A DNA stretch of 64,000 nucleotides from Cryobacterium sp. Y82. GTDB taxonomy: Bacteria > Actinomycetota > Actinomycetes > Actinomycetales > Microbacteriaceae. The DNA lies in the NCBI RefSeq assembly GCF_002929495.1, contig NZ_PJJJ01000037.1, positions 1 to 64,000 of the forward strand. Reading direction: 5' to 3'. Below, in pieces: positions 5,969 through 34,281 of this stretch (positions are counted from its first letter, which is position 1; each line of letters begins with the position of its first letter). Both the position numbers and the translations under genes were made by a program. The notes below the pieces were generated by a model. It did no database searches and was not told the DNA's origin. It worked only from the letters and a program-made list of their open reading frames with translations.

Positions 5969-6135
5969 GGAACCGAATCTACGACGGTGATGCGACGGTG
6001 CCCCGGTCGCCGTCCATTTCCGGCCGCGTCATAGGCCGTTTACGCGTGACGGACGCCCGATGCTTTGTGATTCCTTCACGTTGTCTGAATCAGTCAATAG
6101 ACTCTGAACTGATTAGGCCCGAAGGAGAACAACCC

Positions 6136-8106
6136 GTGAAGCTCGTCGCAGTAACCATCCAGAAGTTCCGCAACTTTGTCGAGCCGCAGCGCGTCGAGAT
6201 CGAACCGGACGTGACAGCATTCGTGGGCAAAAACGAGTCAGGCAAGACGACAATCCTCAAGGCACTGCATCGGCTCAACCCCGCAAATGGTGACAGCACA
6301 AAGTTCGATCTCGTCACTGAGTACCCGCGATGGAAGCTCGCGCGCGACCGACGAGAAAGCGCTGACCTCGGAAAGACCATCCCGGTCCGCGCTGAGTTCA
6401 CGCTTGAGCCGGACGACCTGGCGGCCCTCAACGCCGTGTTTACGGCAGAGATTCCTGCCTCCACCCAAGTCATCGCGTTTCGGAGTTATGAGAACGAATA
6501 CGCGACCTACTTCTCCGCGAAGCTGGCGGACATTGTCGAGAGTGCCGCCACGGCTAGCGCAGTGGACTCGGCCGAGCTGAAGGAACTCCTGACTACCTCC
6601 ACGCTCGACGAGGCAATCGCGAAGGCGAAGGAACTCGCCAAGTCGCTCAAAGACACCCAACCGGCGCGCAGCAAGGCCGTCGGTTCGTTCCCGGGTGTGG
6701 CAGAAAAGTATCGGTTCCTCGTCCAGTCCGACCAGATCGACGACGAGAACCGGAAGGTCCTTCGGTCGCGGGTTCCTAAGTTCTTCTATTTCTCCAACTA
6801 CAGCGTGCTTCCTGGCGAGACCGACCTGACGAAGCTCGCGGCAAGTGTGACTGCGGGCGAAGCACTGGACGAGGAAGATCAGACGGTCGTCTCGCTACTG
6901 GCGCACGCAGGTGTTACCCCGGCAGACTTCCTCGACGCGAACTACGACAGCCGAAAGGCCGAACTGCAGGCGGCTGCGTCTGACCTGAGCCGCGAAGTCT
7001 TCAAATATTGGAGGGCCAATACGGACCTAGCCGTCGTGTTCGGGGACGACAACGTCAACGTGGTCGAGCCGTCGACAGGACAGCCGGCTCTGCACCGCTT
7101 CTTGAAGATTGAGCTTCGGGATGGGCGTCACGGGGACGTCGAGACAAACTTCGCAACCCGGTCGACTGGCTTCCAGTGGTTCTTCTCATTTTTTGCGGCT
7201 TTCAGCGAGTACCAGAACAGCGCAAAGCCGGTCATCGTGCTGCTCGACGAGCCTGGAACGAGCCTCCACGGCGAAGCTCAGAAGGATTTCGTGAACTACA
7301 TCTTCAACGAGCTCGGCGCGAAGAAGCAGACGCTTTACACGACTCATTCGCAATTCATGGTCGATCCGACTGTCTACGAGAAACTTCGCACGGTTCACGA
7401 CAAGGCGACGCGCGAGAACCAAGAGGCCGGGGTTGATGTGAGCCGCGTCAACCTGAAGGCGGACCGCGATACTGTGCTGCCGGTGGAGTCGGCACTCGGC
7501 TACTCGATCAGTCAGCACCTGTTCCTGGGATCTGGCCAGCACCTGCTGGTCGAGGGCAGCAGCGACTTTGTGTATCTCATGCGGATGAGCGCATACATGG
7601 AGTCCAAGAAGAAGCCGATTTTGAGCCCCAAACTCTCGATCATTCCGGTCGGCGGCATCACGAACATGCCTGCTTTCGTTGCTCTGATGGGTCGCCGGTT
7701 GGAAGTGTCCGTGTTGGTAGACGGTGAGAAATCAGCCTCGGTGCTCAACCGGACGCGCAATGCGGCGAAGGAGAACGATGTCCCCGCCGATCGAATCGTT
7801 GCCGTGAGCGAAGTGGACAATTCGCTTCCCAAGGATGGCGACATCGAGGACTTGTTCACCATCGCCGACTACTTGAAGCTCTACAACTGGGCTTTCCCGA
7901 ATGCGACCGTCACGGAGGCTGATCTGGCGTCCTCCCACGGACGCATCCTGGGTCGGATCGAAAGTCACCTGGGCCACAAGTACGACCACGCCAAGCCCGC
8001 TCATGCACTGACTGAAAATCAAGACGACTTCTTCGCCAACATCGACGCGGCGTCAGCCTCAAACTTCGAGAAGCTCTTTGCGACGCTGAACGCGGGCGTC
8101 GCTTAG
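6136..8106 (+). CDS. OLD-family ATP-dependent endonuclease (AAA ATPase + TOPRIM)
   Basis: The start is a GTG at 6136 with AAGGAGAA upstream, giving 656 residues. The N-terminal ABC-type ATPase has Walker A GKNESGKTT (31-39), Walker B VIVLLDEPG (about 364-372) and a His switch TTHSQ (about 397). The C-terminal third is a TOPRIM nuclease domain with the acidic LLVEG (about 470) and VLVDGE (about 526) motifs. OLD-family proteins act in phage exclusion or DNA repair. No UvrD-like partner (as in Gabija) follows, so it fits a stand-alone class 1 OLD. It sits between two recombinases with a secreted-type nuclease, consistent with a small mobile defence cassette. Confidence 0.85.
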   Translation: MKLVAVTIQKFRNFVEPQRVEIEPDVTAFVGKNESGKTTILKALHRLNPANGDSTKFDLVTEYPRWKLARDRRESADLGKTIPVRAEFTLEPDDLAALNAVFTAEIPASTQVIAFRSYENEYATYFSAKLADIVESAATASAVDSAELKELLTTSTLDEAIAKAKELAKSLKDTQPARSKAVGSFPGVAEKYRFLVQSDQIDDENRKVLRSRVPKFFYFSNYSVLPGETDLTKLAASVTAGEALDEEDQTVVSLLAHAGVTPADFLDANYDSRKAELQAAASDLSREVFKYWRANTDLAVVFGDDNVNVVEPSTGQPALHRFLKIELRDGRHGDVETNFATRSTGFQWFFSFFAAFSEYQNSAKPVIVLLDEPGTSLHGEAQKDFVNYIFNELGAKKQTLYTTHSQFMVDPTVYEKLRTVHDKATRENQEAGVDVSRVNLKADRDTVLPVESALGYSISQHLFLGSGQHLLVEGSSDFVYLMRMSAYMESKKKPILSPKLSIIPVGGITNMPAFVALMGRRLEVSVLVDGEKSASVLNRTRNAAKENDVPADRIVAVSEVDNSLPKDGDIEDLFTIADYLKLYNWAFPNATVTEADLASSHGRILGRIESHLGHKYDHAKPAHALTENQDDFFANIDAASASNFEKLFATLNAGVA

Positions 8107-14466: not shown

Positions 14467-15120
14467 TTAGCGGCTGAACTTGTCCAGAGCGGCGAGGGCT
14501 ATTTCCAGTGCGCGGTCGTAGCTGATTCCTGCGGGTCGAACCGAGCCGGGCACGAATCGCTGCGATTTGGGCAGTCGAAGCGTTCCGGAATATCCTTCGG
14601 GAGCGTCCTGCCGGGGCCCATAGCCGGGCTGTAGGAGCAACCACTGACTGAAGGGCTGGTCGGCGTCGTGGAGGACGGCGGCTCGAAACTTGCCGGTCGG
14701 GTTCAGGCACAGGGCCCAGAAGCGGTCGGCTTGGCCTCGGGCCGTGAGGCGTTCACTCACCGGGCAGGGCGTCACCCCGGGGGTCGGCAAGCGCTTCATG
14801 GTCACGGTATGCACGTACGGGCGGAGCTGGGAATCGTCGCGAGTGGGAATGTCGTTGAGCGCTGCTTGGGCGGCTCGTCCTGCGGCGCGGTGCGCGACGG
14901 TGTCGTCGGCGTGGGTTCGGGACCACTCGGTGGCTTCGATGACGCAGCAAATTAGGTTCCAGTCGTAGCTGTAGAACCGGAGGAGGGCGTCTCGGGCGCG
15001 CTGAGTTCTGGGGCTGTCGGTGGTCGTATATCGGGCGAAGAATGCGTTTGCTGCTTTGCGGTCGGCTGCTATGTCGTTGCTGGTGCGTTCGGGACGGGTG
15101 GTGATGGGGAACTGGTGCAT
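14467..15120 (-). CDS. hypothetical protein preceded by the repeated leader cassette
   Basis: 217 residues, soluble. The N-terminal half is helical (AADRKAANAFFARYTTTDSP, then RDALLRFYSYDWNLICCVIE), and the C-terminal half is Pro/Gly-rich ending in SYDRALEIALAALDKFSR. I do not recognise the family. It is the first gene behind copy A of a promoter/leader cassette shared with dprA and ssb, which suggests joint control with DNA-processing genes of the element. Start ATG at 15120 with GCGGAGAGA upstream. Confidence 0.6.
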   Translation of the reverse strand: MHQFPITTRPERTSNDIAADRKAANAFFARYTTTDSPRTQRARDALLRFYSYDWNLICCVIEATEWSRTHADDTVAHRAAGRAAQAALNDIPTRDDSQLRPYVHTVTMKRLPTPGVTPCPVSERLTARGQADRFWALCLNPTGKFRAAVLHDADQPFSQWLLLQPGYGPRQDAPEGYSGTLRLPKSQRFVPGSVRPAGISYDRALEIALAALDKFSR

Positions 15121-15121
15121 G

Positions 15122-15290
15122 ATTCTCTCCGCTCAACTGATTTTTTTGCCTGGCTGGCAAGAGAATCGATAGAGAGCGGGAGTGCCGAAGTGCACGGCTG
15201 GTCGGGGGAAATAAGGGAGCTTGCGACCGCGTCCGACCAGGTGGGCACGTAGGCACGGAAGCGAACTATGATGACCGGCCAGACAGACGA
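15122..15290 (-). promoter_or_regulatory. leader cassette copy A (structured promoter/5' leader)
   Basis: One of three homologous cassettes. Read on the minus strand: a promoter-like block with GGCCGGTCATCATAGTTCGC; a stem with arms CCGACCAG (plus-strand 15233-15240) and CTGGTCGG (15198-15205) around the conserved loop GACGCGGTCGCAAGCTCCCT; the conserved block CTCCCGCTCTCTATCGATT; a short hairpin TTGCC-AGCCA-GGCAA; and the ribosome-binding site. The stem sequence differs from copies B and C but still pairs perfectly. Confidence 0.65.
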
Positions 15291-15536
15291 AAAAAGATAC
15301 AAGACGTCCGCGCAGCGGTCCAAGGACCCCCGCAGAGGCTCCCCCGTGGGTTGCGTCTGGTGTAAGGCAGACTCCCTGCGGCGCTGCCACCGGGGCACGG
15401 GGTTGAGCACGCCGCGGTTTACGAGTTCCCACGCCGAGCGGTGATCGCCACGCTGGTCGGTCTCCCCGCGCGCTCGGTTGTTTCCTTGTCGGATGTGCTG
15501 CCCTGCTGCCGCGGGCCTTGTCCATCGGCCCGGTGG
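15291..15536. other. spacer between the leader cassette and nrdH
   Basis: No recognisable gene; open frames here are shadows with no ribosome-binding site. Confidence 0.4.
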
Positions 15537-23944: not shown

Positions 23945-24375
23945 AAGCAAATTTCCCTCTCTAGGACCCCATACGGTGCTCGTCAATCACCACAACGACA
24001 CAGCGATTGGAATCAGTAACGGGGCTGGCCGGGCGTCGGCGGATTGTGGCAACAGCCGGGCATATTCCTGCCAGCCATGCTGTCGTATCCGTTCGAGCGG
24101 ATCGGGAGTGCACCGTCATGATTCCCTTCCTGTGCGGCGTCGTTGCCGTCTACGTCGAGAGTAATGCTCACCTCTGACATTGGTGGTGACACACCCCCAG
24201 AAGACAAAAAATACCTTCAAAAATCTCGGCCACAACGACCGCCCAGTGCGCTTGGTTGTTCAACCTCGCTGCCGGCGGGCGGTAATCGCCGGACCGCGCA
24301 AGGACCTATTTGGAAGCGGCTGGCGCCGCTGCGAACCTCATATTTTGAGCCGCATCCGCGGCCTGTTTTTCACGG
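23945..24375. other. divergent intergenic region between parA-like gene and dprA leader
   Basis: 431 bp without a recognised gene. It must contain the promoter of the large minus-strand transfer operon, and it borders the plus-strand leader cassette copy B. Confidence 0.4.
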
Positions 24376-24540
24376 GCTTGTTTGACCTTTCCGGCCGGTC
24401 ATCGTAGCTCGCTTCGCGCTTGCGTTCCCAGATTCTCAGACGCGGTCGCAGGCTCCCTTATTTCGCCTGAGATTCTGGGCACTACAGCTCTCCCGCTCGC
24501 TATCGATTTCTCTCGCCGGAAGGCAAACAAAATATTCGGT
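24376..24540 (+). promoter_or_regulatory. leader cassette copy B (before dprA)
   Basis: Second homologous cassette, in plus orientation. Promoter-like TTGACC at 24382 with GGCCGGTCATCGTAGCTCGC downstream; 16-base stem arms at 24427-24442 and 24464-24479 (14 of 16 pairs) with loop GCGGTCGCAGGCTCCCTTAT; conserved block CTCCCGCTCGCTATCGATTT; small hairpin GCC-GGAA-GGC (GNRA-type loop) near 24515; then AGGAG before the ATG. Confidence 0.7.
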
Positions 24541-24561: not shown

Positions 24562-25497
24562 ATGACCATCGCTGCGGTTATCGAGACCATCAGCACCGAC
24601 ACCACCGTGAGCAGTCCCATCAGCCACGACACCATCGCACGCACCGCCTGGGCCACCATCGCCGAACCCGGCGACCCCCACGTCGGCGCACTCATCGCAC
24701 GGTATGGGGCCGAAGCAGCCCTGAACGCCCTCCTCAACCTCAACGGCGATACTGCGGCCAGCCAAGACGGGACCCTCGCGCAGCTGCGAGCATCAGTCTT
24801 GCCTCGGTACTCGGTTGGCCGGGTCGTCGACACGATCCGCCTCACCGTCGCAGGCGGGTACGAGTTGCTCACGCCATCACACCCGAACTGGCCGGCGTCC
24901 GTTGCCAATCTCGGAGAGACAGGACCTTTTGCTCTCTGGGTGCGCGGGGACGCTGCACTTCTGAGCGCGCCGAGCGTGGCGTTGACGGGCACGCAGTTTG
25001 CGACCCCGTACGGCAGGCACGTATGTGTGGACCTGGCCTCCGGCCTGATCGAGCGCGGCTGGGCAATTGCCTCCGGCGCCGCTCGCGGCATCGACGCTGC
25101 CGTCCTCTCCACCGGTCGGGCATTCGCGGGCCGCAACGTGGTTGTTCTCCCCATGGGCATGGACGACACTTGCCCTGCGGAAAACGTGGAGCTGGTCGAC
25201 GGGGTCGCGACGCGCGGTGTTGTCGTGAGTGAAATTCCACCGGGACAAATGTCCTCGGCGTGGCGGTTCCAACGTGGCAACCGACTCCTCGCGGCGCTCA
25301 CAACCAAGACCATCATTGTCGAAGCGGAGCACGAGTCCGGGCACCTCCACACCGCGGAGACCGCCATCGCACTCGGCCGACCGTGCGGCGCCGTGCCCGG
25401 GAGGACTTCGACCGTGTCTAACGCGGGATGCGACCGGCTCATCCGTCAGTTCGGCGCCCAACTTGTCGCCACCATTGACGACGCCGACCGACTCTGA
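24562..25497 (+). CDS. dprA: DprA-like DNA-processing protein
   Basis: 311 residues from the ATG at 24562 (AGGAGAGG upstream). After an N-terminal helical domain comes a Rossmann-type core: VALTGTQFATPYGRH (in place of the usual GSR motif), GWAIASGAARGID, VVVLPMGMD, VVSEIPPG, FQRGNRLLAALTT and AVPGRTSTVSNAGCDRLIR, the last two being classical DprA signatures. DprA binds single-stranded DNA and loads RecA. On a conjugative element it could protect or process incoming strand DNA. It is plus-oriented among minus-strand genes and controlled by its own copy of the repeated leader. Confidence 0.85.
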   Translation: MTIAAVIETISTDTTVSSPISHDTIARTAWATIAEPGDPHVGALIARYGAEAALNALLNLNGDTAASQDGTLAQLRASVLPRYSVGRVVDTIRLTVAGGYELLTPSHPNWPASVANLGETGPFALWVRGDAALLSAPSVALTGTQFATPYGRHVCVDLASGLIERGWAIASGAARGIDAAVLSTGRAFAGRNVVVLPMGMDDTCPAENVELVDGVATRGVVVSEIPPGQMSSAWRFQRGNRLLAALTTKTIIVEAEHESGHLHTAETAIALGRPCGAVPGRTSTVSNAGCDRLIRQFGAQLVATIDDADRL

Positions 25498-25524: not shown

Positions 25525-27438
25525 TCAGGCGGCGCTCCCGGATTCATCCATTTCGACGACGTCGAGCCGCACGACCTCCTCGTCACGACCACGCTCGACA
25601 TCAGCCGGCACCAACACCGGCGTGAGCGGCGCGGATGCTGGTGTCTGCAGTTGCCGGTTGGGCAGTGCTCGGAACGGAGCGATCGCGCCGCCCTGCACGA
25701 TCCAGAACGCTCCGTCCGCGGCTTCCCGCACGTCTTGCGGAGGGATGACGTAGGTGTGTTGGGCGCGGGCGCTGCCGAGCTCTTCGCCGGTGGCGCGGCC
25801 GGCGGATTCCATCCGCATCACCGTCCCGGCATACTTCACCACCTCTTCCGGGTCTTTGGACCGGCCAAAGATCAGCGCCGCGCCACTCGTGAGTGCACGG
25901 CGCCGGCGGACCTCATCGTTAGACAGACCGGCCGGGCTCTGCGTCGCGAGGACTAGGCCGACGCCGGCGCTGCGCGCCGTCTCAAACAGGCTCCCCGCGG
26001 TATCACCCGGGTCCTGCGCACCCGTCACCAGCTGGGGGAACTCGTCAACGATGACGACCACCGGGGACTTGTCGCGGCGCTCCAACCGGGTGGCGAGAAA
26101 GTTCCGCAAGTCCAGCAGGAGCAGATCACCCAGCCGCGCCTGAGCATCGTCGACCGGCGACAGCGGAATGACCGTCACGTCAGCTTTCGGCGCGTTGTAA
26201 GACCAGCCGTCCTGGCCGATCCAGCGTTGCATCGGCCGCAGCGCCACAAGCAGGCTCTGCAACGCCCGTGCTCCCGCGGTCGACCCGTCTCGCTCGACAC
26301 GCTTGTTGATCAGCGGCAGGTCGTCTGTGTCGTCTACGAACCGGGCTGGGTAGGTCCGCCGCTCGCGCAGGTCGGCGATGCTGCGCAGCGGAGACCTGCC
26401 TTGCACCATTTGCAGCACCCCACGAATCTCATCGAGATAATGCTGGTTGGCACCATCAGGGACAGGCATCAGTCGCATCAGCTTCGCCGTGATCTGGTCG
26501 CCGGTGCCGTTGAACAGGTTCCACGTACCGCCGGTTGTCGCCGTCCGGCCGTAAGTCTGCGCCACGGCGACCAGATTCTCGGCGTCAGCCGGGTCACCTT
26601 TCGCGTCTATAACGAACACGGGCCACCCGTATTCCAATGCACACAGCACGAGTCCGTTGATCAGGACGGTTTTGCCGCTGCCGGACTCAGCGATGATCAG
26701 TGCCCGCACCGACGATGCCGTCGGCGGCAGCACCAGATATTTGCCGGTGGCATCGACCCAGTCGCGCACGCGGCGCATGTCATAGAAGCGGTCAGCAAGG
26801 GTCCGAACTGTCACCCGGCTCGTCACCCCGAACGCCTGCCGCTGATCTCCCACAGCCAGCGGTACGGTGACCGCTTGGCGAGTGGTGCCGACGATGCGGC
26901 CTGTCTCGGCTTCGAGGCGCACGCCGATGCGGCGGGCCACGCTGCTGTCGGCGGCACGTTTGCGTGCGGTCTCAATCTTCTCCTGCCGCACCACGTTCGA
27001 TACTCGCCGGGACCGCACCTGCTCGGCGATCTTCCGCCGCCGCAACGACCACGCTGCCGGCAGCAACAGCACACCGGCAAAGAAATTCGCCACCACCCAA
27101 AGACCAAACATCGGCCAAAGCTGCGCCCACCACTCAGCGTCGTCAAAGAACTCGGTCGCGGCCCCCGAACGGATCCAGTCCGCCAGCAGGATTGCCTCCC
27201 ACGTGAGGAGCGCGGCTACGAGGAGGATGCCGACGGTGTTGACTGTCCACTGCCACCGCCACACCACCCAGAACCGGGTCTTCGTCGCGATAACGTCGCC
27301 GGCAATCCGGCTCACCACGACCGGCACGACCAGCGGCAACGCAATCAAGACCATGACGACCGCGAACGCGGCGCCGAGCAGCCGCGCGATCGTGTCGCTG
27401 GTGGCGTCCGTCTCTATCGGAGCGGCCGTGTCGCTCAT
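25525..27438 (-). CDS. type IV coupling protein (TraD/VirD4/TcpA-like)
   Basis: 637 residues from the ATG at 27438. Membrane segments near the N terminus (about 20-50, 65-90, 105-135) precede a large ATPase domain with Walker A IIAESGSGKTVLI (about 260), Walker B VVVIVDEFPQL (about 455) and ATQSPAGLSNDEV. Such hexameric ATPases connect the relaxosome to the secretion channel and pump DNA. Four-base overlap with the replication-relaxation gene upstream. The C-terminal 40 residues are acidic. Confidence 0.87.
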   Translation of the reverse strand: MSDTAAPIETDATSDTIARLLGAAFAVVMVLIALPLVVPVVVSRIAGDVIATKTRFWVVWRWQWTVNTVGILLVAALLTWEAILLADWIRSGAATEFFDDAEWWAQLWPMFGLWVVANFFAGVLLLPAAWSLRRRKIAEQVRSRRVSNVVRQEKIETARKRAADSSVARRIGVRLEAETGRIVGTTRQAVTVPLAVGDQRQAFGVTSRVTVRTLADRFYDMRRVRDWVDATGKYLVLPPTASSVRALIIAESGSGKTVLINGLVLCALEYGWPVFVIDAKGDPADAENLVAVAQTYGRTATTGGTWNLFNGTGDQITAKLMRLMPVPDGANQHYLDEIRGVLQMVQGRSPLRSIADLRERRTYPARFVDDTDDLPLINKRVERDGSTAGARALQSLLVALRPMQRWIGQDGWSYNAPKADVTVIPLSPVDDAQARLGDLLLLDLRNFLATRLERRDKSPVVVIVDEFPQLVTGAQDPGDTAGSLFETARSAGVGLVLATQSPAGLSNDEVRRRRALTSGAALIFGRSKDPEEVVKYAGTVMRMESAGRATGEELGSARAQHTYVIPPQDVREAADGAFWIVQGGAIAPFRALPNRQLQTPASAPLTPVLVPADVERGRDEEVVRLDVVEMDESGSAA

Positions 27439-28172
27439 GCGTGGACCTGCGAGGATTCGCCCCACTCGCTGGTGCTCTCGAGCTCGACCAAAAGGGTGGC
27501 TCTTCCGTGTGCAGTCGCGTGGGCGCCGGCGCCCAGCTCGTCGCCGGTCCAGTACCCGCGTGCGTCGAGGGAGTGTTGGGAAACGAAACGGGGACGGTCG
27601 GTGCGGACCAGGTGCTTGTCAGCCTCCCGCGTCACCGCCCGATCAGCGTCCGCCGTGCAGAAATACGCGATCCGATCAATCCCCTCATGCGCCAAGCGAT
27701 ACGCGTGGCTCTGACAAATCGACTGATACCGCTGCCACGTCTTCGGCGTCAACTCCACCTCCACCAACTCGACAACCCCGTCACGCTCGGCCACCCCATC
27801 GGCCTGATGCTCGCGCACGCTGTTCGGTTTGCGATCCCGCCGCCACGTGAACCCCTGCGCCAGATAGCGCGCCGACACTGTCGCGACCGCTACCTCATGC
27901 CGGGTCGTCTGCCGAAACAGATTCGGCGCCGGCTTCCCAATCGCCAGATACGTGGCCCACACTATCGACCCGTCCCGATACGCCACCCGGCCCCGGTCCA
28001 GCAATCCAGTCCCGATCATCCGCGCCGCCCACTGCTGCGCCCGGCGCAATGACACCGGTTCACCAGCACCCGACAGGGCGCCCAACGCCCACCGCACGGC
28101 GTCCATATCGGCGAGCCGAACAACGTCCAACCACGCCAAAAGTGCCTCGTCGCGCTCCGTCACCTGCACCAT
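27435..28172 (-). CDS. replication-relaxation (MobC-like) protein
   Basis: 245 residues; GGAGG lies seven bases before the ATG at 28172. An N-terminal winged-helix part (ERDEALLAWLDVVRLADMDAVRW) and the central DGVVELVEVELTPKTWQRYQ with a catalytic-looking Glu/Lys pattern match the replication-relaxation family found next to coupling proteins on actinobacterial elements, thought to act at oriT as an accessory or nicking factor. The gene-free, hairpin-rich DNA directly upstream is the natural substrate candidate. No separate relaxase gene was recognised in the window. Confidence 0.75.
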   Translation of the reverse strand: MVQVTERDEALLAWLDVVRLADMDAVRWALGALSGAGEPVSLRRAQQWAARMIGTGLLDRGRVAYRDGSIVWATYLAIGKPAPNLFRQTTRHEVAVATVSARYLAQGFTWRRDRKPNSVREHQADGVAERDGVVELVEVELTPKTWQRYQSICQSHAYRLAHEGIDRIAYFCTADADRAVTREADKHLVRTDRPRFVSQHSLDARGYWTGDELGAGAHATAHGRATLLVELESTSEWGESSQVHA

Positions 28173-28365
28173 CACTCAGCCTCCGAACTGACAACGTTTC
28201 AGCTTTCCAACACGATTCTGCACCCAGCCACCGACACAGCCCCGCATGCCACACCGCACATCGTCCACTTCAACTCATCGACCTCACCGCTTCTGCTCGT
28301 CGTTTTTCTTACCCAATTGCTTCCTACTTCCTGCCGTCGGCTCCCACATTTTCTGCCGGCTTTCC

Positions 28366-28536
28366 CTAGCTTTTCTCGTCACTTTTTTCACTTCTTCTCT
28401 GTCTTCTCTTCTTGTTCTCCCTCTTTTTTTCTTTTCAGTTTTCTTCTTTTGTGTTTTGTACCTCTGTTTTTTTCTTCTACTCTTTTCTTCTCTTTCCCTG
28501 TCCCACCACCACCCCTTTACTTCCCAACCTCCTACA
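28366..28536. repeat. polypyrimidine tract
   Basis: About 170 bp in which the plus strand is overwhelmingly C/T with long T-runs, in stark contrast to the G+C-rich, strand-balanced surroundings. Purines are rare and mostly isolated. It carries no credible gene. It directly abuts the two inverted repeats described next and probably belongs to the same cis-acting region. Confidence 0.8.
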
Positions 28537-28662
28537 CACTGAGGAACGATGGGTGTGGGAGGTTGGGAAGCAAGCGCAGCGAGGGGGCGGCGGTGGGGCA
28601 GGGAAAGAGACCCCATACCTATTCGTTTACCTATTCGCTGCCAGTGAATAGGCAAACGAATA
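28489..28662. other. candidate oriT: two adjacent long inverted repeats
   Basis: The first repeat has perfect-but-one 18-base inner arms (28520-28537 and 28553-28570) and continues outward, after an unpaired segment, with TCTCTTTCCCTG (28489-28500) and its complement (28599-28610). The second has 17-base arms TATTCGTTTACCTATTC (28620-28636) and its near-perfect complement (28646-28662) around a 9-base loop. Large paired hairpins next to relaxation and coupling genes are the hallmark of transfer origins. The nick site itself cannot be placed by eye. Confidence 0.55.
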
Positions 28663-29978: not shown

Positions 29979-30341
29979 CTATTCGGTGTCAGGCTTGGAG
30001 TTACGGCGAACGGTGGCGACGGCCCGGTTGAGGTCGGGGCCGACGTTGTCGGCGTCAATGACGCGGCCGTATTGGCGTGCTTGCTCGTCGCCCCAGCTGT
30101 CGGTGTGCTCGCGGCCAACGACGATCACGGGGTCGCCCTTGTGCAGGGTGGCGGCGACGTTCTGGCCGAGCTCGAACTTGGCTTCCACGAAATGTGTTGT
30201 GGCGGCGTCGTGGGCGAGCCATTTGCCGCCCCGGTATTCGCCGGTGTTTTCGATGACGCGCAGCTTGGTGATCTGGATGCTGCCGGCAGTGACGACTTCG
30301 GGGTCGAGAGCCAGGTTGCCGATGATGGTGCGTGTGGTCAT
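29979..30341 (-). CDS. ssb: single-stranded DNA-binding protein
   Basis: 120 residues from the ATG at 30341 (GGAG upstream). It begins MTTRTIIGNLALDPEV and contains FELGQNVAATLHKGDPVIVVG, the usual SSB OB-fold pattern. The C-terminal acidic tail of housekeeping SSB (DDDIPF type), which recruits partner proteins, is missing. Element-borne SSBs coat the transferred strand and help blunt the SOS response. It is preceded by leader cassette copy C. Confidence 0.85.
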   Translation of the reverse strand: MTTRTIIGNLALDPEVVTAGSIQITKLRVIENTGEYRGGKWLAHDAATTHFVEAKFELGQNVAATLHKGDPVIVVGREHTDSWGDEQARQYGRVIDADNVGPDLNRAVATVRRNSKPDTE

Positions 30342-30420
30342 GAGTGCTTCTCCTTCGATGAGTGCTGCGTTAACGTGCGGTGGGTGTCGTTGGCCTTGGG
30401 TTCTTCGACCAACTGTTTCT

Positions 30421-30575
30421 GGTGCCTTCCGGCGAGAAAATTCGATAGCGAGCGGGAGCTCCGCGAGTGCACAGAATCTCAGACGAAGTGAGGGAGCCTG
30501 CGACCGCGTCTGAGAATCTGGAAACGGTAGGCGCACAGCGATCTATTGTGGTCGGTCGGACAGGTCACAAATTGT
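30421..30575 (-). promoter_or_regulatory. leader cassette copy C (before ssb)
   Basis: Third homologous cassette, minus orientation. Stem arms CAGAATCTCAGACG (plus 30472-30485) and CGTCTGAGAATCTG (30507-30520), 13 of 14 paired; loop CGCGGTCGCAGGCTCCCT on the minus strand; conserved CTCCCGCTCGCTATCGAATT and the small GCC-GGAA-GGC hairpin at about 30427-30436. The promoter-like part (GACC...CACAATAGATCGC) lies around 30540-30570. Confidence 0.7.
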
Positions 30576-30800
30576 GTTCACGCGGTGGCGATGCGCGCCG
30601 ATTGTGGCCGCGATCGGGCGGCATTCGGCGGCCGTTTTGGCAAGTTATCCACAGGCGTTTTTCGCGCGCGCGTACTGTTAATGTTTTGTTTGTCCTGTTA
30701 GTACTGTTAGGGGGGCCGATCACCGGCCCCCTATAGGGCCAGATCTGGCCCCCTATCGGTACGCTAAACGGCCCCCTACGGGGGCCGGTCACCGGCCCCC
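30576..30800. other. candidate replication origin of the element
   Basis: Contains a perfect DnaA box TTATCCACA (30645-30653), an AT-richer stretch with GTACTGTTA repeated (about 30671 and 30700, plus a partial CCTGTTAG copy), and a cluster of G/C palindromes. A 21-base module GGGGGCC-GRTCACC-GGCCCCC occurs at 30711-30731 and again at 30780-30800, with GGCCCCCTA repeats between. It adjoins a Rep-like winged-helix gene and lies upstream of ssb. The last palindrome overlaps the 3' end of that gene. Confidence 0.55.
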
Positions 30801-33032: not shown

Positions 33033-34205
33033 ATGGCAACAATTTCCGCGTACCAGTCGGCGAACGGACGTCGATATCGGGTGCGGTATCGAACGCCGGA
33101 CCGTCGACAGACGGACAAGCGTGGCTTCACCAGCAAGCGTGAAGCTGAGCGATATCTGGCTAGTGTTTCCGTCGCGAAGGACAAGGGCGAATGGATCGAT
33201 CCAACCTTGGCGCGCATCTCCGTCAACGCCTGGTCGCAGGTCTGGCTGAGCGCCCACTCAAATCTCAAGCCGACTACTCGCGGCGCGTATGCGTGGATTC
33301 TCAAGAAGCACATTATTCCCCGATGGGGCCGGGTCGCCCTCATCGATGTGACCCACACCGCCGTGCAGGCTTGGGTCACAGAGCTCAGCGATTCCCTCGC
33401 CCCCTCGAGCGTGCGCAAGGTTCATGTCGTGCTGTCCGGCGTCATGAAATACGCCGTCCGGGATCGTCGCATCCCACGCAATCCGTGTGACGGAGTGCGC
33501 CTTCCTCGCGTCGCTGAGAGTGACCGGGGTTATCTGACGCCCGAACAAGTGGATGAGCTAGCCGCGCTCTGCGCGCCCTCTTCGACGGTGATCTACCTGC
33601 TGGCCTATACGGGCCTCCGATGGGGCGAGATGGCCGCCTTGAAGGTCAAGAGGCTCGACTTGGGGCGCCGACGCCTGGACGTAGCTGAAGCCATTACAGA
33701 GCCAACGGGAGCCATCCTCTGGGGCACCCCGAAGAACCACGAGCGACGGTCAGTACCGTTTCCGGCGTTCTTGACCGAAATGCTCCAGGCCCAGTGCGCA
33801 GGCAAGTCTCGGGAAGAACTGGTGTTCACCTCCCCGGATGGCGACGTACTCCGAAGCGGAAACTTTCGACGTCGCACCTTCACGGCGGCCGTCACCGAGC
33901 TCAGGCGTCGCCAGCCAAACCTGCCCGCGATCACCCCGCACTCGCTGCGGCATACAGCGGCGTCGTTGGCAATTTCGTCAGGCGCGAGCGTTCTGTCGGT
34001 GCAGCGAATGCTCGGACACGCCTCAGCAGCGATGACTTTGGATGTCTACAGCGACCTCTTCGAAGACGACTTAGACGCCGTTGCAGACGCCCTCAATAAC
34101 CGCGCACTTAAAACAAATGTGGGCAAATTGTGGGCAAATCCGTCAAATTCGAAGACACATACCGCTGAGACGGTTTTAGAAACCACGTCTGACCAGCATA
34201 TTTAG
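33033..34205 (+). CDS. int: tyrosine site-specific integrase
   Basis: 390 residues. An N-terminal AP2-like arm-binding part (VRYRTPDRRQTDKRGFTSKR), a core-binding helical domain (about 60-165) and the catalytic domain: Arg in TGLRWGE (about 194), the HxxR box in HSLRHTAASL (about 303) and the nucleophile Tyr in VYSDLF (about 339). The stop codon at 34203-34205 directly abuts the CCA end of tRNA-Thr, so this enzyme most likely integrates the element into that tRNA gene. Confidence 0.92.
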   Translation: MATISAYQSANGRRYRVRYRTPDRRQTDKRGFTSKREAERYLASVSVAKDKGEWIDPTLARISVNAWSQVWLSAHSNLKPTTRGAYAWILKKHIIPRWGRVALIDVTHTAVQAWVTELSDSLAPSSVRKVHVVLSGVMKYAVRDRRIPRNPCDGVRLPRVAESDRGYLTPEQVDELAALCAPSSTVIYLLAYTGLRWGEMAALKVKRLDLGRRRLDVAEAITEPTGAILWGTPKNHERRSVPFPAFLTEMLQAQCAGKSREELVFTSPDGDVLRSGNFRRRTFTAAVTELRRRQPNLPAITPHSLRHTAASLAISSGASVLSVQRMLGHASAAMTLDVYSDLFEDDLDAVADALNNRALKTNVGKLWANPSNSKTHTAETVLETTSDQHI

Positions 34206-34281
34206 TGGAGCCGCCTGTCAGAATCGAACTGACGACCTTCTCATTACGAGTGAGATGCTCTACCAACTGAGCTAAGGCGGC
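34206..34281 (-). tRNA. tRNA-Thr(CGT), attachment site of the element
   Basis: Minus-strand cloverleaf starting GCCGCCTTAGCTCAG at 34281, with an anticodon loop containing CGT (reads ACG), TTCGATT in the T-arm, a 7-bp acceptor stem, and an encoded CCA at 34206-34208. The 3' half would serve as the crossover core. The second att copy was not found in the window. Confidence 0.93.

What the first reader, a model, noticed from the sequence alone, without database searches (positions are those of the whole stretch)
24376..24540. Promoter/leader cassette in three copies before dprA, ssb and an unknown gene
About 150 bp are shared at 15122-15290, 24376-24540 and 30421-30575, always in the same orientation relative to the downstream gene. 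Shared parts include the upstream promoter-like block, a large hairpin with the loop core CGCGGTCGCA-GCTCCCT, the block CTCCCGCT-CTATCGA and a second short hairpin. A common structured leader for DNA-processing genes of an integrative element is not a system I know.
Basis: seen in the sequence. Interest (0 to 1): 0.85.

Follow-up and report, generated by a model that had tools for sequence, protein, structure and literature searches.

The report
Hairpin promoters on conjugative-element single-stranded DNA
Three copies of a 160-base foldable DNA cassette in front of plasmid-establishment genes look like promoters that work only when the DNA is single-stranded, as it is while a plasmid or integrative element moves between cells; such promoters are known from enterobacterial plasmids, and this looks like an unrelated family in actinobacteria.

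Summary
Three copies of a ~160-bp unit (15134-15295 -, 24378-24538 +, 30409-30572 -) precede a 217-aa unknown gene, dprA and ssb; none was found elsewhere in this genome. The whole unit, not only its centre, is one long imperfect palindrome. A covariance model finds it in 63 of 398 genomes of the host's family (27 of 85 genera) but only in the own genome of 396 drawn across the phylum. 146 of 173 copies end within 100 nt of a start codon, of ParB, ArdC, SSB, DprA, DUF3560, DUF3846, NrdH and unknown genes. Pairing is backed by covariation (17 of 30, then 25 of 30 pairs with two-sided changes). The strand that folds better is the gene's template strand (135 of 139; 52 of 53). Its 3' arm carries a -10-like TAnnnT (139 of 139; 52 of 53) that points away from the gene in duplex DNA but into it once folded. 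This is the anatomy of the single-stranded promoter Frpo of plasmid F, without sequence similarity. Best reading: an ssDNA promoter family. Against it: no canonical -35, no experiment, and some copies, dprA here included, lie on the other strand.

The parts
15134..15295 (-). Copy 1 of the hairpin cassette, upstream of the 217-aa gene; template (folding) strand is +
   Evidence: 168.8 bits; fold -35.1 template vs -26.6 coding
15267..15272 (+). Copy 1: -10-like TATGAT on the 3' arm of the folded template strand
   Evidence: conservation
15152..15158 (-). Copy 1: inferred transcription start zone of the folded promoter, about 37 nt before ATG
   Evidence: inference from the fold
14467..15120 (-). 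217-aa gene downstream of copy 1; no family match; its cluster of 19 proteins was collected behind hairpins
   Evidence: structure model unusable, mean pLDDT 44.5
24378..24538 (+). Copy 2 of the hairpin cassette, upstream of dprA; template strand is -
   Evidence: 177.1 bits; fold -33.3 template vs -28.8 coding
24401..24406 (-). Copy 2: -10-like TACGAT on the 3' arm of the folded template strand
24515..24520 (+). Copy 2: inferred transcription start zone, about 46 nt before ATG 24562
   Evidence: inference from the fold
24349..24370 (+). Terminator-like hairpin plus T-run just upstream of copy 2, in the gene's direction
24562..25497 (+). dprA-like gene (311 aa), DNA_processg_A; nearest PADLOC models ShosA/PsyrA
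30409..30572 (-). Copy 3 of the hairpin cassette, upstream of ssb; template strand is +; lowest-scoring copy
   Evidence: 137.6 bits; fold -29.9 template vs -27.5 coding
30544..30549 (+). Copy 3: -10-like TATTGT
29979..30341 (-). ssb gene (120 aa), start 68 nt behind the cassette
28517..28662 (.). Candidate oriT of the element: two 21-nt inverted repeats upstream of the MobC-like gene
   Evidence: inference
27435..28175 (-). MobC/replication-relaxation-like gene (weak match)
   Evidence: E 4.5e-8, 32.7 bits against a curated cut-off of 200; no Pfam match

Best explanation
Each cassette is a single-stranded-DNA promoter. When the gene's template strand is single (in the usual case the transferred T-strand entering a recipient), it folds into a ~160-nt stem-loop. 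The two arms re-create a duplex in which the 3' arm acts as non-template strand with a -10 element TAnnnT set in a bulged, easily melted stretch. The host's housekeeping RNA polymerase then initiates in the outer stem and runs out of the base of the hairpin into the adjacent gene, about 37-46 nt before its ATG in copies 1 and 2. In duplex DNA the same -10 points away from the gene, so the genes would be switched on at entry and off once the second strand is made. Shown here: the palindrome, its covariation, which strand folds better, the conserved TAnnnT, the position before establishment genes, and the shared strand with the relaxase gene on the plasmid contigs tabulated. Inferred: polymerase binding, start site, timing, and that the T-strand is the template.
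For: Covariation: 28 diverse copies, 17 of 30 pairs with two-sided changes (shuffles 9.9 +/- 1.6), 91 two-sided cells against 24.6 +/- 5.0. 53 copies from other genera, none of them in the first alignment, aligned to the model: 25 of 30 pairs (17.1 +/- 1.6), 249 cells against 73.1 +/- 6.6. Folding strand: template strand more stable in 135 of 139 copies; excess over dinucleotide shuffles positive in 120 of 139; 52 of 53 in the second set, no shuffle control. Wobble: coding-strand G.T 77 vs A.C 201 cells over 40 pairs, shuffle expectation 212 vs 335; signed-rank p 0.014 on weighted counts. -10: exact TAnnnT in 139 of 139 and 52 of 53 aligned copies (the odd one has one extra base), with the inner three bases varied and paired by compensation. 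Position: 171 of 173 copies have an ORF start within 400 nt, median 22 nt. Downstream clusters are DUF3846, DprA, ParB, DUF3560, NrdH, SSB, ArdC and unknowns, like the F leading region (ssb, ParB-like, psiB, antirestriction). Insulation: a terminator-like hairpin plus T-run in the gene's direction lies within 60 nt upstream of 50 of 141 copies, against 20 of 2000 random stretches and 2 of 141 for the opposite direction. Strand: 77 of 77 hairpins on 24 selected contigs share the relaxase gene's strand. An oriT-like block upstream of mobC in 20 of 20 sequences is laid out so that the T-strand would be the arrays' template. Yardstick: the regions taken as F Frpo1 and Frpo2 also fold better on the template strand, -71.0 vs -65.1 and -66.1 vs -63.0.
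Against: No canonical -35: the expected position holds a conserved GGnACG instead, while Frpo is reported to carry canonical -35 and -10 boxes (PMC9849209, passages). Some copies sit on the strand opposite to the others: the dprA copy in this element and its relatives (10 of the 11 mixed loci among 43 multi-copy loci); a related hairpin about 550 bp from oriT on the strand opposite to mobC in 10 of 20 sequences, where the template strand is more stable in only 6 of 9; and 16 of 33 multi-copy contigs outside Cryobacterium are mixed (my tally of the capped listing). Arrays are not always near oriT along the T-strand: median fraction of the contig 0.27 (MOBP) and 0.51 (MOBF), assuming circular contigs and an oriT next to the relaxase gene. 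Other bases near the -10 are invariant too. About half of the strand preference is compositional, and A.C is also the commoner mismatch in shuffles. Copy 3 does not re-form the outer stem in its best fold. No nic site or transcript has been measured.
Confidence: 0.7

Rival explanations
1. The cassette is a structured RNA leader: transcribed from an upstream duplex promoter, it folds in the mRNA next to the ribosome site and controls translation or termination.
For: 146 of 173 copies end within 100 nt of a start codon; structured and covarying; the coding strand also folds better than its shuffles (mean z -1.93, template -2.88).
Against: The coding strand folds worse than the template strand in 135/139 and 52/53 copies; coding-side G.U is depleted more than A.C; a terminator-like signal in the gene's direction sits directly upstream in 50 of 141 copies, its T-run merging with the 5' outer arm, which leaves no room for a leader promoter there; no sigma-70-type promoter around copies 1 and 2; the conserved TAnnnT reads on the other strand; no Rfam match at gathering thresholds.
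Confidence: 0.12
2. The hairpin works in duplex DNA: supercoiling or SSB extrudes a cruciform and the template-strand hairpin is the promoter, so either gene orientation works without transfer.
For: Explains conserved copies on both strands, including dprA here and back-to-back pairs before ArdC and a ~100-aa gene family. Phage N4 virion polymerase uses extruded template-strand hairpins (recalled, no call).
Against: A 160-nt imperfect palindrome with a large inner cap should extrude poorly (inference); the confinement to establishment-type genes fits transfer better.
Confidence: 0.1
3. Primarily a single-strand initiation site (ssi/sso) where polymerase lays the primer for second-strand synthesis; gene expression is secondary.
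For: Frpo is described as doing both (title of Masai and Arai 1997 as cited in PMC11541004); several copies on one strand in 32 of 43 multi-copy loci.
Against: Spacing to individual start codons and recurrence before particular genes are not needed for priming.
Confidence: 0.05
4. An operator repeat for a shared plasmid regulator of the establishment genes in duplex DNA.
For: Conserved sequence blocks besides the stems.
Against: Operators conserve sequence, not pairing; here stems change by compensation and inner caps differ completely between subgroups.
Confidence: 0.03

Closest known systems
Frpo / ssi single-stranded DNA promoters of F and ColIb-P9 (PMC9849209 and PMC11541004 read in passages; Masai and Arai 1997 and Nasim 2004 seen only as citations)
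   Same: Template-strand stem-loop shortly before ssb and other leading-region genes; repeated copies per plasmid; -10 in the folded arm; template strand folds better; leading genes on the same strand as the tra genes in F.
   Different: No match of model R1 in 19.5 kb of F that hold the leading region; about 160 nt; no canonical -35; -10 of TAnnnT type; found in Microbacteriaceae and some other actinobacteria; some copies on the opposite strand.
EGeRS1 elements before establishment genes of Bacillus plasmid pLS20 (PMC8708921, passages)
   Same: Gram-positive conjugative plasmid; repeated inverted-repeat-rich blocks before ardC and other establishment operons.
   Different: About 400-750 bp; its authors call an ssDNA promoter highly unlikely because the nicked strand is the non-template strand and no promoter is seen in the fold; here a promoter-like element is seen and the template is the inferred T-strand for most plasmid copies.
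EGeRS2 of p576 (PMC8708921, passages)
   Same: Repeated control region of establishment genes.
   Different: Strong duplex promoter with a Reg operator; only two short inverted repeats.

Membership tests
Frpo/ssi-type ssDNA promoters (as a mechanism) | Single-stranded template strand folds into a long stem-loop upstream of the gene | tested here: met
   (prediction and covariation only; copy 3 of the window folds imperfectly)
Frpo/ssi-type ssDNA promoters (as a mechanism) | Fold re-creates a -10 box pointing into the gene | tested here: met
   TAnnnT in the 3' arm, 139 of 139 and 52 of 53 copies
Frpo/ssi-type ssDNA promoters (as a mechanism) | Fold re-creates a canonical -35 box | tested here: not met
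   conserved GGnACG, not TTGACA-like, at the expected distance
Frpo/ssi-type ssDNA promoters (as a mechanism) | Precedes leading-region/establishment genes (ssb, antirestriction, ParB-like) | tested here: met
Frpo/ssi-type ssDNA promoters (as a mechanism) | Transferred strand is the template | tested here: inconclusive
   met by proxy for 77 of 77 hairpins on 24 selected contigs and by oriT layout; not for the dprA copy here, the hairpin near oriT, and mixed contigs
Frpo/ssi-type ssDNA promoters (as a mechanism) | Lies in the leading region, close to oriT | tested here: inconclusive
   nearest hairpin 1.7 to 124 kb from the assumed oriT; below half the contig in 14 of 16 MOBP and 4 of 8 MOBF contigs
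Frpo/ssi-type ssDNA promoters (as a mechanism) | Transcription by host RNA polymerase from ssDNA, off in duplex | not testable with these tools
   needs in vitro transcription and mating
Frpo sequence family of F-like plasmids | Sequence/structure similarity to known Frpo | tested here: not met
   R1 has no match up to E 1 in NC_002483 48000-67500
EGeRS1 of pLS20 | 400-750 bp multi-branched region; T-strand is non-template | tested here: not met
   single ~160-nt stem-loop; T-strand only inferred, as template for most plasmid copies
Known RNA families (Rfam 15) | Match above the gathering score | tested here: not met
   only two tRNAs in the window

The most novel reading that the evidence does not exclude
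A two-strand code. The same hairpin promoter is placed on the strand that becomes single in the recipient for ParB, ArdC, SSB and DUF genes, and on the opposite strand for a second set (dprA in these integrative elements, an nrdH gene near oriT, and a ~100-aa family starting MRVFVIDTRNMGPELQGG). The second set would fire from the retained strand exposed in the donor, or later in the recipient, so strand choice would sort genes by cell and time during transfer. It would be the first ssDNA promoter family described in actinobacteria (none found in the searches) and one with donor-side members.
Probability: 0.15. Interest if true: 0.92.

Novelty: new variant of a known kind. Interest (0 to 1): 0.78.

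Why it matters
In the passages I saw, single-strand promoters are shown by experiment only for plasmids of enterobacteria; for the Gram-positive plasmid pLS20 the idea was considered and called highly unlikely (PMC8708921). A family in actinobacteria with strong covariation and a visible -10 gives a testable second origin of entry-timed gene expression, a covariance model that marks establishment genes (including unknown ones such as the 217-aa family), and a natural experiment on what a polymerase needs to start on a folded strand.

Tried and rejected
Tried and of no use: AlphaFold model of the 217-aa protein (mean pLDDT 44.5; no fold search made). Pfam, NCBIfam, PHROGs and PADLOC for that protein: no match. 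Search of the window for the plasmid oriT motifs: 4 matches with up to 2 mismatches against 1.33 expected, 4 of 100 shuffles reaching 4, and 1 against 0.96; not convincing. Direct or inverted repeat of the tRNA region inside the window: none of 17 nt. Phage records: no match. The loop core occurs in 4 viral-collection contigs, not followed. The first wobble count failed because of a missing setting and was repeated.

Considered and rejected as main reading: RNA leader, operator repeat, cruciform promoter, priming site only (see rivals). Rows dropped before counts: of 158 profile hits, hits of 80 bits or less, clearly partial ones and those of L028 (same plasmid as L061) were dropped, leaving 141, 139 unique; one search uses hits over 55 bits; I left out four agreeing contigs and three mixed ones, named in the report; one search skipped 1 of 10. 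One search used 30 of the fetched loci and matches up to 1e-10.

The literature searches for a precedent listed none in actinobacteria; one search looked for oriT literature. The library holds open-licence papers only.

Full report
WHAT IS THERE. Copy 2 (24376-24540) has two relatives in its own 3.69-Mb genome, both in this window: 30423-30567 - (83%, E 1.1e-34) and 15141-15286 - (78%, E 7.5e-24). With a profile the limits become 24378-24538 +, 30409-30572 - and 15134-15295 -. Each stands before a gene in the same relative orientation: a 217-aa gene (ATG 15120), dprA (ATG 24562) and ssb (ATG 30341). The element around them looks integrative and conjugative: an SCO6880-family gene over its cut-off; weak VirB4-, ParA-, TraD- and MobC-like matches; and an integrase directly abutting tRNA-Thr.

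HOST AND RANGE. The genus is inferred to be Cryobacterium (Microbacteriaceae), because contig G004:C2 has the same length and match coordinates as C. arcticum NZ_CP016283. In 100 relatives, own genome included, 35 have a match, all in this genus, up to 9 per genome; four of them (G010, G026, G041, G045) have only a stretch of 30-35 nt. 36 of 72,556 plasmid records match copy 2: Clavibacter 16, Curtobacterium 6, Cryobacterium 5 and others, including Arthrobacter, Dietzia and Brachybacterium; 21 of the 36 match in about the inner hairpin only. No phage record matches. A covariance model R1 (28 copies, template strand) finds 63 of 398 genomes of the family, 27 of 85 genera, 6 of 396 in the order, five of these in the same family, and only the own genome of 396 in the phylum sample, all at E 1e-4 with strict filters.

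STRUCTURE. Folding and alignment show one long stem-loop: an outer stem (T-run plus a CCTTTCCGGC-type arm with its complement and A-run), a bulged stretch with conserved bases, a middle stem, and an inner cap that differs completely between subgroups. On 28 diverse copies 93.0% of cells pair (shuffled 82.3%), 17 of 30 pairs have two-sided changes (9.9 +/- 1.6) and slid controls give at most 9. On 53 copies from other genera, aligned to the model and therefore leaning towards it, 25 of 30 pairs (17.1 +/- 1.6; slid at most 15) and 249 cells (73.1 +/- 6.6). With the 139 unique copies of the first set, 24 of the 40 pairs predicted on both strands have a compensatory Watson-Crick change.

WHICH STRAND FOLDS. 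With DNA parameters the strand complementary to the gene (its template) is the more stable in 135 of 139 copies, by 5.55 kcal/mol on average. Dinucleotide shuffles already give 2.74, so about half is composition; the excess is positive in 120 of 139. In the second set 52 of 53, mean 6.12, without a shuffle control. Over 40 pairs coding-strand G.T (77) is depleted more strongly than A.C (201) against 212 and 335 in shuffles; signed-rank p 0.014 on weighted counts. This favours a template-DNA fold over an RNA leader, moderately. The window copies, template vs coding: -35.1 vs -26.6, -33.3 vs -28.8, -29.9 vs -27.5.

THE -10. On the 3' arm of the folded template strand the hexamer TAnnnT is present, in register, in 139 of 139 copies of the first set (7 different hexamers) and in 52 of 53 of the second (7 hexamers, among them TAGGTT, TAGATT and TATCGT; the odd one has one extra base). 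The inner bases change together with their partners. TAnnnT is the usual actinobacterial -10 (recalled). Other bases nearby are invariant too, so this is a strong hint and not proof. In duplex DNA the box points away from the gene; in the fold it points through the outer stem into the gene. The predicted start is about 37 nt (copy 1) and 46 nt (copy 2) before ATG; copy 3 does not re-form the outer stem in its minimum-energy fold. At the -35 distance there is a conserved GGnACG, not a TTGACA-like box.

INSULATION. Within 60 nt upstream of the unit a terminator-like hairpin plus T-run, in the gene's direction, is found by a strict rule in 50 of 141 copies, against 20 of 2000 random stretches of the same loci and 2 of 141 for the opposite direction. 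Copy 2 has it (24349-24370), copies 1 and 3 do not by this rule. Its T-run runs into the 5' outer arm. This speaks against an upstream duplex promoter reading through the unit, and suits a gene meant to be silent in duplex DNA.

WHAT IT CONTROLS. 173 copies over 55 bits (a few redundant, e.g. L027 and L079 are one plasmid): 171 have an ORF start within 400 nt, median 22 nt, 146 within 100 nt; the start chooser prefers SD-bearing starts, so the SD count (168 of 171) is biased. Downstream proteins cluster as DUF3846 37, DprA 26, the 217-aa family 19, ParB 16, DUF3560 14, NrdH 12, a 50-aa Cys-containing protein 11, SSB 9 and ArdC 4, of 164 unique proteins (names from one representative per cluster). 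In 38 copies from 15 loci of other genera (10 of them already among the 173) the start lies at 10-24 nt in 31 and at 84-86 nt in 5; 35 of 38 downstream proteins match the earlier clusters, some of them trivially because they are the same copies. These are the kinds of genes of F's leading region.

STRAND AND TRANSFER. Of 43 loci with two or more copies, 32 (110 copies) have all on one strand and 11 are mixed; 10 of the 11 are of the dprA type seen in this window. On 24 contigs that I selected because they carry both hairpins and a relaxase gene, 77 of 77 hairpins share the relaxase gene's strand. Left out of that table: G460:C49, G483:C3, G248:C30 and G446:C2, which agree by the listings, and the chromosomal contigs G123:C1 and G408:C1 and contig G197:C5, which are mixed. 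The listing is capped. These plasmids are related, so the cases are not independent, and co-orientation of a gene block explains part of it. Upstream of mobC 20 of 20 sequences share GAGCAAGCTA next to an inverted repeat (L027 and L128 are one plasmid and two come from one contig). In well-known oriTs the hairpin lies 5' of the nic on the cleaved strand (recalled), which would make the T-strand the template of the arrays. The distance to the array along the T-strand varies from 1.7 to 124 kb. In this element the inverted repeats at 28517-28662 are a candidate oriT; the ssb cassette would then lie about 1.7 kb into the leading side with the T-strand as template, while dprA would be on the wrong strand.

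EXCEPTIONS. A related hairpin with one of the inner caps lies about 550 bp from oriT on the strand opposite to mobC in 10 of 20 sequences. In 8 of the 10 the start of the gene behind it looks alike, and the one translated (L127) is NrdH-like; L138 and L139 differ. Its strand preference is weak: template more stable in 6 of 9. Outside Cryobacterium, by my tally of the capped listing, 17 contigs with two or more listed matches are uniform and 16 mixed. In the mixed loci looked at, one strand typically carries ParB, ArdC or SSB and the other an NrdH, a DprA or the ~100-aa family. A pure T-strand rule does not cover these.

YARDSTICK AND LITERATURE. The two 90%-identical regions of F upstream of ssb and of the gene at 64.0 kb, taken as Frpo2 and Frpo1 from the description in PMC9849209, show the same sign of strand preference, and R1 does not match there. 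PMC11541004 (passages) found Frpo-homologous promoters in 6,006 elements by similarity to five known sequences, none of significant similarity in its Streptococcus island, and its main text has no word beginning 'actino'. PMC9849209 (passages) shows early expression from Frpo1/2, ssDNA also in donors, and notes that ygfA, next to oriT, faces the other way. PMC8708921 (passages) calls ssDNA promoters highly unlikely for pLS20. PMC12826799 (passages) finds Frpo by blast only. Searches for an actinobacterial precedent listed none.

VERDICT. The finding is real and more interesting than first read: a new family, unrelated in sequence, that probably works like Frpo (0.7), with an unexplained second orientation.

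Noticed in passing
window 28517-28662: Two strong 21-nt inverted repeats (90% complementary) upstream of the MobC-like gene: candidate oriT of the element.
   Followed up: partly
window 30672-30800: Iteron-like repeats GGCCCCCTATAGG at 22-23 nt spacing and GTACTGTTA repeats next to ssb.
   Followed up: no
window 33033-34281: Tyrosine integrase abutting tRNA-Thr (right end of the element); no att repeat of 17 nt inside the window, so the left end is unknown.
   Followed up: partly
L123, L125, L127, L129, L130, L131, L133, L134, L138, L139: Second, related hairpin class sharing one inner cap, about 550 bp from oriT, facing away from mobC, mostly before an NrdH-like gene.
   Followed up: partly
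L123-L139, L027, L029, L121: Conserved oriT-like block GAGCAAGCTA plus inverted repeat upstream of mobC in 20 of 20 sequences; a GTCACACCTCTG block just before mobF in 6 of 10 others.
   Followed up: partly
L149, L150, L157: Back-to-back hairpins about 140-180 bp apart serving divergent ArdC and a ~100-aa family (MRVFVIDTRNMGPELQGG...).
   Followed up: partly
upstream flanks of 50 of 141 hairpin copies, e.g. window 24349-24370: Terminator-like hairpin running straight into the 5' outer arm of the cassette.
   Followed up: partly
window 24562-25497: The dprA-like protein scores with ShosA/PsyrA defence models of PADLOC as well as with DprA.
   Followed up: no
window 5998-8106: AAA ATPase with OLD-like TOPRIM, scoring with AriA/OLD/GajA defence models.
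   Followed up: no
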